A DNA stretch of 35,209 nt from a virus: the IMG/VR virus record IMGVR_UViG_3300046007_010838, positions 1 to 35,209 of that record. One strand, given 5' to 3'. The notes under the pieces were generated by a model. The model ran no database searches and was not told the origin of the DNA. It saw nothing but the letters and a program-made list of their open reading frames with translations. Every line of letters starts with the position of its first letter. Within the stretch, counting starts at the first letter, position 1. Below, piece after piece: positions 22,648-27,968 of this stretch. A program made the position numbers and the translations under genes.

Positions 22648-23565
22648 ATGTCAAAAAGAAAAACAATTGAAGAGTGGCAGGATGAAAGTAATATAATCCA
22701 TAATAAAGAGTTTGATATACTTCAAATACCTAAAAGTGGATTTGATAAAATAGATGTTTTGCATAAGAAGTGTGGAAATGTTTTAAAAGTATCTCCTCGT
22801 AATCACCTAAAAAGGTATTGTACTTATTGCTCTGGTAAAAAGCAGAAAACAAAGGAGGAATGTCAAGTTGAAAGTGATATAATTCATAATCGCGAGTTTA
22901 TTATTTTAGATACACCCAAAAATGTAAAGGAAAATATTAGAATTTTGCATAAGAAGTGTGGTTCTATAATTAATATGACTATAAATAATCATTTAAACCA
23001 TAAAAATGGTTGTAAAAAATGTTCAAAAAATTCATTAAAATCTAATGAATACTGGATAAATAAGTGTAAACAGATATGGGATGATGAATTTAAAATACTT
23101 GATTATGTTGATAATGTTTGGAAAAAAGTTAGAATTGAACATAGTTTGTGTGGAAGTATTTTAATAAAAGATATGAATAATTTAATTCATAATAAAAGAG
23201 GTTGTAGTATCTGTACTAGAAAATCATATGGTGAATTTTATGTAAAAGAATTTTTAGATAAAAAAAATATAAAATATGTAAATCAAAAGTCTTTTGATGG
23301 TTTGATTAATCCAAAAACTGATAGAAAGTTGAGGGTTGATTTTTATTTACCTGATTATGACCTGGTATTGGAAATAGATGGAGTTCAACATTATAAACCA
23401 ATAGAGCATTGGGGTGGTGAGAAATCCTATCTAGAACAAGTTTACAGAGATAATATAAAAAATGACTTTTTTGGAAATAAATTAATAAGAATAAATAATA
23501 AAAAAATAAAAGATATAGAAAAAATATGGCAACAATTACAAAAACAAGAACAAAATCACAAGTAG
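22648..23565 (+). CDS. homing-endonuclease-like protein: three zinc-ribbon-like repeats plus Vsr/PD-(D/E)xK nuclease
   Basis: A 305-residue mobile-element nuclease. Three repeats of about 65 residues each contain H-x3-CG and C-x2-C (LHKKCGNVLKV...CTYC; LHKKCGSIINM...CKKC; EHSLCGSILIK...CSIC), probably metal-bound DNA readers. The C-terminal 115 residues form a nuclease: RVDFYLPDYDLVLEIDGVQH with Asp231 and Glu242, then a conserved EQVYRDNIKNDFF helix and LIRINN. Such free-standing genes spread by cutting DNA that lacks them. Its end overlaps the clpS start by 40 nt, which suggests insertion directly against clpS. Confidence 0.85.
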   Translation: MSKRKTIEEWQDESNIIHNKEFDILQIPKSGFDKIDVLHKKCGNVLKVSPRNHLKRYCTYCSGKKQKTKEECQVESDIIHNREFIILDTPKNVKENIRILHKKCGSIINMTINNHLNHKNGCKKCSKNSLKSNEYWINKCKQIWDDEFKILDYVDNVWKKVRIEHSLCGSILIKDMNNLIHNKRGCSICTRKSYGEFYVKEFLDKKNIKYVNQKSFDGLINPKTDRKLRVDFYLPDYDLVLEIDGVQHYKPIEHWGGEKSYLEQVYRDNIKNDFFGNKLIRINNKKIKDIEKIWQQLQKQEQNHK

Positions 23566-23810
23566 ATGCAATTTTATCAAAACCATACAGACTAATATTA
23601 CATAATGATGATCATTCAACTTTTGACCACGTTATTAGTTGTCTTATGAAAGTATGTAAGCATGAATACGAACAAGCAACACAATGTGCTCATATTGTTC
23701 ACAATAATGGTAAGTGTGATGTTAAGTATGGTGATTTAGAAACCATTTCAGAAATGAAGAATTTACTAAAATCGGCGGGACTCTCAGTCACTATGGAAGT
23801 GAATGAATAA
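23526..23810 (+). CDS. clpS: ClpS-like N-degron adaptor, Bacteroidota type
   Basis: A 94-residue adaptor. LILHNDDHSTFDHVI (24-37) holds the Asn27-Asp28-Asp29 pocket; CKHEYEQATQCAHIVHNNGK holds the pocket His59; KCDVKYGDLETISEMKNLL follows. The CKHEYEQATQC and VHNNGKC signatures match flavobacterial ClpS better than other phyla. ClpS delivers proteins with Leu, Phe, Tyr or Trp at the N-terminus to ClpA/ClpC-ClpP. With the ClpP gene at 10285, the phage brings two parts of one proteolytic route. The start lies inside the end of the homing-endonuclease gene; no later Met would leave the binding pocket intact. Confidence 0.9.
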   Translation: MATITKTRTKSQVDAILSKPYRLILHNDDHSTFDHVISCLMKVCKHEYEQATQCAHIVHNNGKCDVKYGDLETISEMKNLLKSAGLSVTMEVNE

Positions 23811-25006: not shown

Positions 25007-27259
25007 TTATTTACCATTACTATTAAACCAATTTATACCAGTACTATTAACATCATTAACAGTTTTATTTCTGTTTAAAACTTTTCTTCTAACACTTAAT
25101 AACTGAGAATAGTCAACTGTTTCGGTATATTCAAGATTATTTAAACATTCTTCAACATAATTTTTAAATATAGTATCTTTTTGTAATGTATCTTCAACCA
25201 TTTCTTTGAAATCATTCTTAGAAAATATTGAAGTTGTATTCACAATAGTCATTACACAGTCGTCATGTCCAACATCTGCTGCATATCTAGTGTTACCCGC
25301 GGTCGTAGTGTGTTTAACAAATGTTGTAATCTCTCTAACAGTTTCCTCGTTATTTATAGAGAATCCTTTAGAAATCATTAAATCTTGATAATCTTTAACC
25401 ATCATATTCTTATTTTCACCTACTTTTAATCCAACCTTTTCTTCAGTTGCATCTGCTCTATGTTTATATCTAAAGAAAATAGATGAACCATATTGATTAT
25501 TGCCATCAAAAACGTGTGGTAGTTCTGCCAATAAGGTATTACCATAGTTATTTAACTCTAAAACTATTTTAACATTGTCTGGATTAAAATATTCAAATGC
25601 TAATATGTAAAGTAATTCTGCTAATTGTTTAACTGAAATTAAATTACTTCTAAATAAACCAAATTGTTCCAATCTAATAAAGTCGGTAACTGATTTATAG
25701 GAAGCTTTCTGTGATTCTATTAAATCCATATCCTTTTTAGATATTTTAAATATGTTCATAATAGAATAATCTTGTCCTAAACCTTCAGATATATCAACTG
25801 ATATAATAACCTTCTCAGTTTTTCTATTAATAGGTAGAAATATTTCGTCATCATCAATCCATTTCAAATCTTTATAACTAAATCGTAACTTATTTTCAAA
25901 TTCAAAAATCTCTTCAAACTTATAATTCTTCTTATTATTTAAAAGACTATCAATTATTGCCTCATTTAATAATGACTTACTTGAGTTGATAAATCTTAGA
26001 CCATATTCTTGATTAAAAGCATCCTCACCACCAATATCCTTTACTGCTTCTTCTTTCCAAGTTGTCATCTCACCAATTGCTCTTAAAGGAACTTCAAATC
26101 CTTTTGAATCAATAAATGTTAGATTTTTAACATCCTCATCTGTACATCTCTCATTATTAAATACAGAGATGATATCTTTTTGAAAATCTGAGTTGAACCC
26201 CATATGAGTTTTTGTTATATTCTCAGGATATGTTTCTCTAATACTACTAAATATTTGTTCTTTTGTTACACCATGTTCATATAATCTATGATTATTTAAT
26301 CTTAAATAAGTTACAAATCTTCCTGGTACTTGATGCCAGTAAACTCTCATTGCCTTATAGTTATTTTTAAGTGGATCCCCATCAGGTCTTTCTGCATCTG
26401 TTAACAACTTATGGAATAAGTTCATACCATTTGGTGTTGATGTAATAATAATCTTTGAATTTTGTACTGCTGATACGGTTGGATAAGCAGCGGTATAGTA
26501 TGGTTCTATAATATTTGAAGGAATATGTGCAAACTCATCAAGATAAAGTACGTCAATGGTAAAACCGATTGCTGGTGTTTTAGATCTTGCAGATGTTTTT
26601 ATTCTACATCCATTTTCAAATGTTAGTGACTTTTGATTCCAAGTTTTAATACCTGGTTTTAAAAAGAATGGTAATAACGAGTAGATAGATTTAATTTTAT
26701 CTACAATCTCAACTGCTGTATCTCCTTTATTGGCAACAATCATTATATTTTTATCATTACTAAATAAAATTGTATGTAACATAAATATTGATGCAGAGAT
26801 TGTATTATGTGATAATATACCATTTGTGTAAAATCTATGATTTGGATGATCAACTGTTAAATCAAACATTGATAAAGTATATCCTTTTTTACTAATAGAA
26901 TTTATTTTTTGAATACCTGTTTCTGTAATAATATAATCACCTTTTTTTAAATCTTTTACAAAAACCTCATTGAAATACTTATCAAATACTATATGATTAT
27001 CAGCACATTCAAGATGATAGTTATCTAAATCAATTCTATAAACATCAAATGGTTGAGTTGAGTGTATCTCACTTACTGGTTGGTATCCAGTATCTGTCTT
27101 AACTTTTAGATTATTAGTCTTTATTGAATATAATATTTTTTTAGAAATATCATTCTGGTCTAAATCATTATTTCTAAGTTCATAATTTTCAATATTTTCA
27201 ATAAGTTTATATAAAAAATAAGTTATTTTATTTTTTATTTTTTCAAAAAATTTATACAT
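25007..27259 (-). CDS. terminase large subunit, C-terminal part, preceded by split-intein C-fragment
   Basis: A 750-residue product. Residues 1-152 are the C-terminal part of an intein: block B His in LECADNHIVF (His89), then block F VDHPNHRFYTNGILSHN with the final His151-Asn152. The terminase resumes at Thr153 and runs to 750: Walker B VLYLDEF (Asp241-Glu242), the coupling motif TSTPNG, and the RNase H-like nuclease with Asp489 (SVDISEGLGQDYS), Glu568 (LELNNYG) and Asp666/667 (GHDD). Terminase packages DNA: an ATP motor plus headful nuclease. The Walker A loop is on the other fragment (27450-27968), so function needs trans-splicing or association of the halves. Confidence 0.93.
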   Translation of the reverse strand: MYKFFEKIKNKITYFLYKLIENIENYELRNNDLDQNDISKKILYSIKTNNLKVKTDTGYQPVSEIHSTQPFDVYRIDLDNYHLECADNHIVFDKYFNEVFVKDLKKGDYIITETGIQKINSISKKGYTLSMFDLTVDHPNHRFYTNGILSHNTISASIFMLHTILFSNDKNIMIVANKGDTAVEIVDKIKSIYSLLPFFLKPGIKTWNQKSLTFENGCRIKTSARSKTPAIGFTIDVLYLDEFAHIPSNIIEPYYTAAYPTVSAVQNSKIIITSTPNGMNLFHKLLTDAERPDGDPLKNNYKAMRVYWHQVPGRFVTYLRLNNHRLYEHGVTKEQIFSSIRETYPENITKTHMGFNSDFQKDIISVFNNERCTDEDVKNLTFIDSKGFEVPLRAIGEMTTWKEEAVKDIGGEDAFNQEYGLRFINSSKSLLNEAIIDSLLNNKKNYKFEEIFEFENKLRFSYKDLKWIDDDEIFLPINRKTEKVIISVDISEGLGQDYSIMNIFKISKKDMDLIESQKASYKSVTDFIRLEQFGLFRSNLISVKQLAELLYILAFEYFNPDNVKIVLELNNYGNTLLAELPHVFDGNNQYGSSIFFRYKHRADATEEKVGLKVGENKNMMVKDYQDLMISKGFSINNEETVREITTFVKHTTTAGNTRYAADVGHDDCVMTIVNTTSIFSKNDFKEMVEDTLQKDTIFKNYVEECLNNLEYTETVDYSQLLSVRRKVLNRNKTVNDVNSTGINWFNSNGK

Positions 27260-27453
27260 TTTTCAATTATTTTATTTTTATTTTCCTCACCAACTCTACT
27301 ATACTCTGAGTCCCATACATACAACACTTCATATCCATTATCTATTGCAGTTTTTAATTTTTCTTTATCCTTCAGCCATATATCTTTTGAGGTTATATTT
27401 TTTCTGAATGGATGTGGTGTATCATTCTCGTTGAATTTTAAAAGAGTAATTAG
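27235..27453 (-). pseudogene. remnant of a Vsr-like homing endonuclease in the gap of the split intein
   Basis: An open frame of 72 codons with no start codon, closed by stops on both sides. Its translation has the ending typical of Vsr-like intein- or intron-linked endonucleases: NDTPHPFRKN, SKDIWLKDKEKLKTAIDNGY, EVLYVWDSEYS and KIIEKCINFLKK. The N-terminal catalytic part is gone. It overlaps the start of the terminase C-part by 25 nt. It matches the known 'fractured gene' arrangement, where a free endonuclease gene sits between two halves of a split intein, here in decay. Confidence 0.75.
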
Positions 27454-27968
27454 TTAATTATGTCTATAATTTTATATAAAGAATATTTAATATAATCAAA
27501 TAAATTTTTATTTATTTTATACATGAATAATAATTTATACATAGGTATTTCTATTTTAGTAATATTGCCCTTATCATCTATAATTTCACATAAAACTCTG
27601 GTAATCAACTGATTACACTTACCCACCTGACGGCTGGCCATTAAAATATTAAATCTACTATTTACAAAGTTATCTAATATTTCTTTTTGGTACTCTCTTA
27701 ATTTAATTTGGCCTACCGACCCATCTTCTGTTTTTACTTTACAATATTGTTCTGTAAAGTAATGTACATCTAGAGCACATTTTATGTATTCTTCCTGCTC
27801 TTCAGGAGACATTCTAAAAGATACACCTGCTCTTCTTAATCCTACTTCGGATTTTAGCCAAGGATTTTGGTATCTTTTTATAACGATACCATCATTTATT
27901 TTATCTGTTGATTCATCTACCAGCTTCGTGGTAAAGATCATTTGTTTCTCTATTATTTCTTTTGCCAT
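27450..27968 (-). CDS. terminase large subunit, N-terminal part, followed by split-intein N-fragment
   Basis: A 172-residue product. Residues 1-117 are the N-terminus of the terminase ending exactly at Walker A, MASRQVGK. Cys118 then begins the intein N-fragment (CNQLITRVLCEIIDD, 55 residues). In an uninterrupted terminase the next residue would be Thr (SRQVGKT), and Thr is the first residue after the intein C-fragment in the other gene. Joining the two exteins gives a 715-residue enzyme. The intein N-fragment ends in a helical stretch (YIKYSLYKIIDIIN) similar to the start of the C-fragment (KITYFLYKLIENIENYE). The adaptor region before Walker A contains LREYQKEIL, typical of T4 gp17. Confidence 0.93.
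   Translation of the reverse strand: MAKEIIEKQMIFTTKLVDESTDKINDGIVIKRYQNPWLKSEVGLRRAGVSFRMSPEEQEEYIKCALDVHYFTEQYCKVKTEDGSVGQIKLREYQKEILDNFVNSRFNILMASRQVGKCNQLITRVLCEIIDDKGNITKIEIPMYKLLFMYKINKNLFDYIKYSLYKIIDIIN

What the first reader, a model, noticed from the sequence alone, without database searches (positions are those of the whole stretch)
25007..27968. Terminase large subunit fractured by a split intein at Walker A, with a decaying endonuclease between the halves
The N-part ends ...SRQVGK|C..., the C-part resumes ...SHN|T..., exactly inside the Walker A loop SRQVGKT. The intein N-fragment is only 55 residues and the C-fragment 152, so the break lies early in the intein, unlike the better-known gp41-type split inteins. 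Between the halves is a start-less remnant of a Vsr-like endonuclease. This matches the published fractured-gene arrangement, caught here with the endonuclease already broken. The essential packaging motor would depend on protein trans-splicing.
Basis: partly seen in the sequence, partly recalled or inferred. Interest (0 to 1): 0.8.

Follow-up and report, generated by a model that had tools for sequence, protein, structure and literature searches.

The report
Split-intein phage packaging motor, endonuclease deleted
In this large virus of bacteria the gene for the DNA-packaging motor is broken in two inside its ATP-binding loop by a split intein, a self-splicing protein insert that should rejoin the halves; the DNA-cutting gene that normally sits between the halves and spreads the insert has been cut down to a stump, so the virus appears left with an obligatory splicing step.

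Summary
Confirmed. On the minus strand, a T4-gp17-type terminase large subunit (TerL) is split at SRQVGK|T (Walker A) into an N-half (117 extein + 55 intein residues) and a C-half (152 intein + 598 extein). All splicing residues checked (Cys1, block-B His, block-F Asp and His, penultimate His, Asn, Thr+1) are intact and conserved in the family. The 190 bp between the halves holds the last ~66 codons of a homing endonuclease. Against the nearest relative, L089, whose endonuclease is intact, it is one clean 838-bp deletion that removed the start and every catalytic-type residue. It is not a sequencing slip: the N stop and C start sit where relatives have them, and closely related terL genes lack the intein exactly at GK|T. 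The intein is mobile: window and L089 are 88% identical in the intein but 76% in the extein. The architecture is the known 'fractured gene' type, and atypically split TerL inteins (AceL, GOS) are known. Apparently new: the break lies inside an extra long helix, giving longer N-fragments (about 47-63 aa) than the 15-37 aa reported; endonuclease loss recurs (at least 10 state changes); the same site also occurs as contiguous inteins, with a swapped endonuclease, and with halves 12 or 80 kb apart. Splicing itself is untested.

The parts
27618..27968 (-). TerL N-extein (117 aa) ending SRQVGK (first part of Walker A)
   Evidence: aligned to T4 gp17; PHROG terminase large subunit
27453..27617 (-). 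Intein N-fragment, 55 aa: Cys1, two strands and first helix (about 33 aa), then an extra helical tail (about 22 aa)
   Evidence: secondary structure inferred from the AF2 model of the contiguous homologue L113
27450..27452 (-). Stop codon (TAA) of the N-half, at the position used by L089, L003, L015
27440..27441 (-). Breakpoint of the 838-bp deletion relative to L089
27238..27441 (-). Endonuclease remnant: C-terminal ~66-68 codons, open but start-less, overlapping the C-half start by 22 nt
26804..27259 (-). Intein C-fragment, 152 aa: 25-residue N-terminal helix (lead) plus Hint strands, ending LSHN
25007..26803 (-). TerL C-extein (598 aa plus stop): T of Walker A, Walker B LYLDEF, coupling motif STPNG, nuclease motifs SVDISEG / LELNNYG / GHDD
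   Evidence: (PF03237)
27450..27968 (-). Whole N-half gene
25007..27259 (-). Whole C-half gene

Best explanation
A mobile, atypically split intein sits between Lys and Thr of the TerL Walker A loop. The N-half and C-half are translated as two proteins. The short N-intein, with its helical tail, docks on the larger C-intein, with its helical lead, to rebuild one Hint fold. Cys1, the block B/F residues, penultimate His, Asn and Thr+1 then excise the intein and join GK to T, restoring the ATP-binding loop, so the packaging ATPase should only work after trans-splicing. The intein reached this phage lineage by horizontal transfer, presumably homing by the zinc-finger plus PD-(D/E)XK/Vsr-like endonuclease encoded between the halves. 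A recent single 838-bp deletion then removed that endonuclease and left the intein immobile but still required. Shown by sequence: the anatomy, the empty site in relatives, intact splicing residues, the deletion, the horizontal history. Inferred: expression, docking, splicing, homing activity, essentiality.
For: Anatomy. Intein-free relatives join exactly at GK|T, e.g. L010 (N-extein 99%, C-extein 93%) and L005 (97% over the whole extein). Split homologues with full-length endonuclease: L089, L002, L003, L015-L019, L021, L022, L028 and others. Cys1 in 89 of 89 N-fragments and SHN|T in 96 of 96 C-fragments examined (near-duplicate records included); A86, H89, D133, H141, S150, H151, N152 invariant in 40 C-inteins. 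Fold: window C-intein model pLDDT 90.5, best PDB match the split intein VidaL, then other inteins incl. CatC; sequence match to VidaL E=3e-8 and CatC E=8e-7. Deletion: flanks 82% and 92% identical to L089, offset 838 bp. Mobility: window-L089 C-extein dS 1.24 versus intein dS 0.25-0.38; window-L002 extein 94% but intein 50%; L115-L028 extein 99% but intein 43%. Constraint: intein dN/dS 0.16-0.20; the 66-codon remnant shows 14 synonymous and 4 nonsynonymous differences, so its divergence is mostly older than the deletion. N- and C-inteins covary beyond extein relatedness (partial Mantel r=0.50, p=0.0005).
Against: No splicing, expression or packaging data exist. The exact deletion junction was found in no other IMG/VR contig, so it rests on one assembly. 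The window is a 35-kb fragment; a second terL elsewhere cannot be excluded, and a distant relative (LR756501) does carry a terL-like paralogue. Endonuclease similarity follows the extein at least as well as the intein, so simple co-mobility of endonuclease and intein is not proved. No co-conversion tract from an L089-like donor was seen beside the site.
Confidence: 0.88

Rival explanations
1. Sequencing or assembly error: the true gene holds a continuous intein or an intact endonuclease.
For: Single contig; deletion junction not seen in another IMG/VR record. Continuous forms of this intein exist (L113, L144, L167, Kuja).
Against: N stop and C start lie where L089, L003 and L015 have them. The breakpoint has no repeat long enough to mislead an assembler. 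Endonuclease-less split forms recur in other contigs, e.g. L103/L104/L106 from three records and L128 beside L124.
Confidence: 0.04
2. Broken, non-functional terL: the gene is dying and packaging uses another terminase.
For: Endonuclease already gone; window is a fragment, other terL copies cannot be ruled out; a degenerate terL-like paralogue exists in the distant phage LR756501.
Against: All ATPase and nuclease motifs intact; C-extein and intein under purifying selection (dN/dS about 0.15-0.20); both halves open over their whole length; splicing residues intact.
Confidence: 0.05
3. RNA-level intervening sequence (group I or II intron) rather than protein splicing.
For: Other phages split terL by group I introns (ICP1, PMC10448857; Jug phages, PMC12363816).
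Against: No Rfam family reaches threshold in the window; the inserted stretches code for an intein fold on both sides, with the extein junction exactly at Cys1 and Asn/Thr+1.
Confidence: 0.02
4. The split intein has been kept as a regulator: trans-splicing times assembly of the packaging motor, which is why it outlives its endonuclease.
For: Endonuclease loss recurs while intein residues stay intact; halves persist even when 12.4 kb apart (LR756501) or about 80 kb apart (VmeM-32).
Against: Precise intein loss is simply rare once the endonuclease is gone, so persistence needs no benefit; many close relatives do without the intein.
Confidence: 0.12

Closest known systems
Fractured genes with split inteins (Dassa et al. 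2009, NAR 37:2560; paper not held here, known from memory and from citations)
   Same: Conserved phage enzyme gene broken by a split intein with a free-standing endonuclease gene, some Vsr-like, between the halves; relatives such as L089 and L003 fit fully.
   Different: In the window the endonuclease is deleted to its last ~66 codons; the break lies early in the intein, not at the canonical site of gp41-type split inteins.
AceL-TerL, GOS-TerL and their consensus Cat (atypically split TerL inteins, S2 split after first helix)
   Same: Inteins of terminase large subunits split early; the C-fragment core aligns to CatC from residue 43.
   Different: Reported N-fragments are 25-37 aa (PMC11766414) and 15-37 aa for all natural atypical ones (PMC13014065), here 55. 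Both fragments carry an extra helix missing from CatC. +1 residue is Thr here, Cys in GOS-TerL, so at least that insertion site must differ.
VidaL split intein (6vgv)
   Same: Best match by sequence and by fold to the window C-intein.
   Different: VidaL is split after strand 2 (S1; PMC13014065); the extra helical lead of the window C-fragment lies outside the region that aligns to it.
Contiguous TerL inteins at the P-loop Lys|Thr (mycobacteriophage TerL1-a, PMC5050341; Vibrio phage Kuja, L084)
   Same: Same position inside Walker A, between Lys and Thr.
   Different: One polypeptide, no split; Kuja has no recognisable match to the helical lead and tail.
EDxHD / Vsr-like homing endonucleases (I-Bth0305I)
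   Same: Intact homologues carry a zinc-finger N-terminus and a C-terminal REase-like domain (DUF559).
   Different: Profile found no convincing solved relative; the window copy has lost all catalytic-type residues.

Membership tests
Split intein (Hint fold, protein trans-splicing) | Nucleophile at intein position 1 | tested here: met
   Cys1 in the window and in 89 of 89 N-fragments
Split intein (Hint fold, protein trans-splicing) | Block B His, block F Asp/His, C-terminal His-Asn, nucleophile at +1 | tested here: met
   H89, D133, H141, H151, N152 invariant in A7; Thr+1
Split intein (Hint fold, protein trans-splicing) | Hint fold | tested here: met
   AF2 models of window C-intein and of contiguous L113, Foldseek matches to inteins E down to 9e-8
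Split intein (Hint fold, protein trans-splicing) | Ligated extein product | not testable with these tools
   needs expression
Fractured gene (Dassa type) | Conserved enzyme gene broken by a split intein at a site that is empty in homologues | tested here: met
Fractured gene (Dassa type) | Free-standing intact endonuclease gene between halves | tested here: not met
   Window has only a ~66-codon remnant; met in L089 and most relatives
Atypically split intein | Split near the N-terminus (S1 or S2) giving short IntN | tested here: met
   IntN 55 aa, break after first helix but inside a second, extra helix
Atypically split intein | IntN 15-37 aa (range reported so far, not a strict definition) | tested here: not met
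   55 aa here, about 47-63 aa in relatives, against the range in PMC13014065
EDxHD/Vsr-like homing endonuclease | Catalytic acidic and His residues of the nuclease core | tested here: not met
   Invariant E225, D239, E250, H257 (L089 numbering) all lie in the deleted part
Terminase large subunit, T4 gp17 type | Walker A/B, coupling motif, RNase H-type nuclease acids | tested here: met
   Walker A complete only after splicing

The most novel reading that the evidence does not exclude
This terL site preserves the whole life cycle of natural intein splitting in living phages. An endonuclease invades an intein that carries an extra long helix and breaks the gene inside that helix; the two half-helices, fixed on the fragments, keep the pair working. 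The endonuclease is then repeatedly swapped (even for an opposite-strand one), truncated or deleted, after which the halves stay as neighbours, drift 12-80 kb apart, or become one gene again. The window is a fresh deletion stage.
Probability: 0.4. Interest if true: 0.68.

Novelty: new variant of a known kind. Interest (0 to 1): 0.52.

Why it matters
Naturally split inteins without any endonuclease (such as cyanobacterial DnaE) are thought to descend from endonuclease-bearing ones, but intermediate stages are rarely seen. Here one insertion site offers intact, truncated, deleted, swapped, fused and dispersed forms in relatives, so the order of events and the role of the extra helix become testable. 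For phage biology, it implies that the packaging ATPase of a family of large phages often depends on protein trans-splicing in its ATP-binding loop. For protein engineering, it supplies dozens of new atypically split inteins with candidate natural docking helices and, from halves 12-80 kb apart, pairs that must find each other in trans.

Tried and rejected
Group I/II intron: no Rfam hit. Sequencing-error reading: rejected from conserved stop/start positions and relatives. Junction in a second IMG/VR contig: not found. Co-conversion tract from an L089-like donor: not seen. Re-fusion of the contiguous form L167 by simple in-frame deletion from L165: rejected, because the helix region differs while flanks are 94-96% identical, so an allele exchange is likelier; direction of split versus fused is left open. 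Solved relative of the endonuclease: none convincing (best E 0.28 and 0.07, the latter myosin). First alignment of mixed N and C fragments (A3) misplaced the N-fragments and was discarded. Folding a fused N+C window construct was not attempted because the tool takes unchanged window sequences only; the contiguous relative L113 was used instead. Promoter scan gave counts no higher than shuffles, so no regulatory claim is made. The original papers on fractured genes and GOS-TerL are not in the held library.

Full report
OBSERVATION. The window is a 35,209-bp viral record from IMG/VR, with no longer assembly held. On the minus strand two neighbouring genes make up one T4-type terminase large subunit. 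The N-half (27968-27450) has 117 residues of TerL ending SRQVGK, then 55 intein residues starting with Cys. The C-half (27259-25007) has 152 intein residues ending ILSHN and 598 of TerL starting with T. N-half 43-120 and C-half 153-291 align to adjoining stretches of T4 gp17 structures (3cpe: 117-194 and 192-328), which puts the break between Lys and Thr of Walker A. Walker B, the coupling motif and the three nuclease motifs are present.

WHAT LIES BETWEEN. The 190 bp between the genes hold an open frame without a start (27453-27238). Profiles on the window alone say little, but relatives settle it. In L003, L015, L002 and others the same place holds an intact gene of about 325-330 aa. It has an N-terminal zinc-finger region (ROS/MUCR-like, E 8e-4 to 4e-4) and a C-terminal restriction-endonuclease-like domain (DUF559, E 6.7e-6 for the L002 type). 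The closest relative, L089, has an intact 328-aa copy whose last 67 residues are 96% identical to the window's stump. Aligning the two loci, the left flank is 82% and the right flank 92% identical, with an offset of exactly 838 bp and a breakpoint at 27440/27441, just after the N-half stop. The deleted part includes the start, the zinc finger and all residues invariant in the nuclease core (E225, D239, E250, H257 in L089 numbering). Between window and L089 the remnant shows 14 synonymous but only 4 nonsynonymous differences (dN/dS 0.04). So most of that divergence arose while the gene was still coding, and the deletion is recent.

NOT A SEQUENCING SLIP. The N-half stop and the C-half start are where L089, L003 and L015 have them. 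Of the 80 best relatives in IMG/VR, about 64 carry the two exteins with no intein, joined directly at GK|T wherever both sides are on the contig. The nearest, L005, is 97% identical over the extein, with L006 next.

HOW IT SHOULD WORK. All residues needed for splicing are present and conserved: Cys1 in 89 of 89 N-fragments and SHN|T in 96 of 96 C-fragments, near-duplicate records included; H89, D133, H141, S150, H151 and N152 invariant in 40 C-inteins. The AF2 model of the window C-intein (pLDDT 90.5) is a Hint fold whose best PDB match is VidaL. It adds a 25-residue helix at its N-terminus. CatC, the consensus of AceL/GOS TerL inteins, aligns only from residue 43, so this lead is extra. The N-fragment likewise runs about 22 residues past the point where AceL-type N-fragments end (AceL end point from memory). 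In the contiguous homologue L113 the two pieces form one long helix (residues 37-68, after the first helix 21-33; pLDDT 89.5). The split therefore falls inside an extra helix after the usual S2 site. I infer, but did not show, that the half-helices help the fragments dock. N- and C-fragments covary beyond extein relatedness (partial Mantel 0.50, p 0.0005), as expected of a co-inherited or co-adapted pair.

HISTORY AND MOBILITY. On the extein tree the window sits among intein-free phages; on the intein tree its partner is L089. Window and L089 share 88% of the intein but 76% of the extein; dS is 0.25-0.38 in the intein against 1.24 in the C-extein. Conversely window and L002 share 94% of the extein but 50% of the intein, and L115 and L028 share 99% and 43%. 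The intein therefore moved, and alleles were exchanged. The endonuclease itself tracks extein similarity at least as well as intein similarity; perhaps it is tuned to target DNA, but I did not test this.

STATES OF THE SAME SITE. A second scan with a C-intein profile gave 80 loci. Among them: about 45 have a 0.9-1.3-kb gap, nearly all an endonuclease of the same family; 11 have a larger gap, some with an unrelated endonuclease family (PHROG 3339/559), in L020 (=L111), L105, L110 and L124 on the opposite strand; 14 have 300 bp or less, several with C-terminal stumps like the window's (L112, L127, L129, L136, L142); 3 are contiguous; in 6 the N-half was not on the contig piece held. In L153 a stump is fused in frame to the C-half. 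L136 holds stumps of both endonuclease families. L128 equals L124 (99% extein, 99% intein) minus the endonuclease. The tree needs at least 10 changes between endonuclease present and absent, and 3 between split and contiguous (quick tree, direction not inferred). In the 735-kb phage LR756501 the halves lie 12.4 kb apart. In Vibrio phage vB_VmeM-32 they lie about 80 kb apart. Vibrio phage Kuja has a contiguous mini-intein at the same place.

COMPARISON WITH THE KNOWN. This is the fractured-gene arrangement of Dassa et al. 2009 (paper not held; cited in PMC11766414, PMC10448857, PMC13014065; content from memory). The Lys|Thr P-loop site is a classic intein site (PMC5050341). Early-split TerL inteins are known: AceL-TerL with 25 and GOS-TerL with 37 N-terminal residues (PMC11766414); natural atypical splits reported so far have N-fragments of 15-37 aa and lie after strand 2 or helix 1 (PMC13014065). 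The window and its family differ by N-fragments of about 47-63 aa and by the split extra helix. It is a member of the split-intein and atypically-split classes by the features tested. It no longer meets the 'intact endonuclease between' feature of a full fractured gene.

VERDICT. Real, correctly read by the first stage, and a new variant of a known kind. The single locus is mildly novel; the family-wide series of endonuclease loss, exchange, fusion and dispersal is the more interesting part. Limits: one contig for the window's deletion, no expression data, a fragmentary genome, a quick tree, and AF2 models of single chains rather than of the two-fragment complex.

Noticed in passing
window 22648-23565 (+): A second, complete homing-endonuclease-like gene (305 aa, PHROG 559 E 6e-53, weak DUF559) lies 1.4 kb from the end of the C-half and overlaps the start of a ClpS-like gene (23526-23810).
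   Followed up: partly
L082 and L086 (LR756501, 735 kb): 609445-611493 and 623877-624356: The two halves of a split-intein TerL lie 12.4 kb apart with unrelated genes between; C-part ends LNLN|T instead of LSHN|T.
   Followed up: partly
L085 and L087 (Vibrio phage vB_VmeM-32): 1.1 kb and 80.0-80.3 kb: TerL C-half beside the tail sheath gene, N-half (34-aa intein-N) about 80 kb away on the opposite strand next to other packaging-like genes; the C-half also has a second intein at DE|C (Walker B).
   Followed up: partly
L088 1839-667 and L083 5931-6746: Extra truncated TerL ATPase-like paralogues whose Walker A has lost the Lys-Thr (SRQMGI) in two huge phages.
   Followed up: no
L020 3236-4963 (-), also L105, L110, L124: Gap between TerL halves holds a different, 575-aa class of homing endonuclease on the opposite strand.
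   Followed up: partly
L136 3448-3729: Short gap contains stumps of two unrelated endonucleases, one in each orientation, suggesting successive occupation.
   Followed up: partly
L115, L121, L149 (C-extein): The same TerL carries a second, contiguous intein of about 330-360 aa with a LAGLIDADG-like stretch, at the nuclease motif (GNDD|C / GHDD|C), besides the split one.
   Followed up: no
L137 3368-4500: In-frame TGA codons in both intein-N and gap gene suggest TGA=Trp; the gap gene has an HELSHAY (metalloprotease-like) motif and no Pfam match, so it is not an obvious endonuclease.
   Followed up: partly
L083 (LR756500) C-part end at about 4399: Intein-C ends ILSSQ|T rather than SHN|T: an unusual terminal Gln without the penultimate His.
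   Followed up: no
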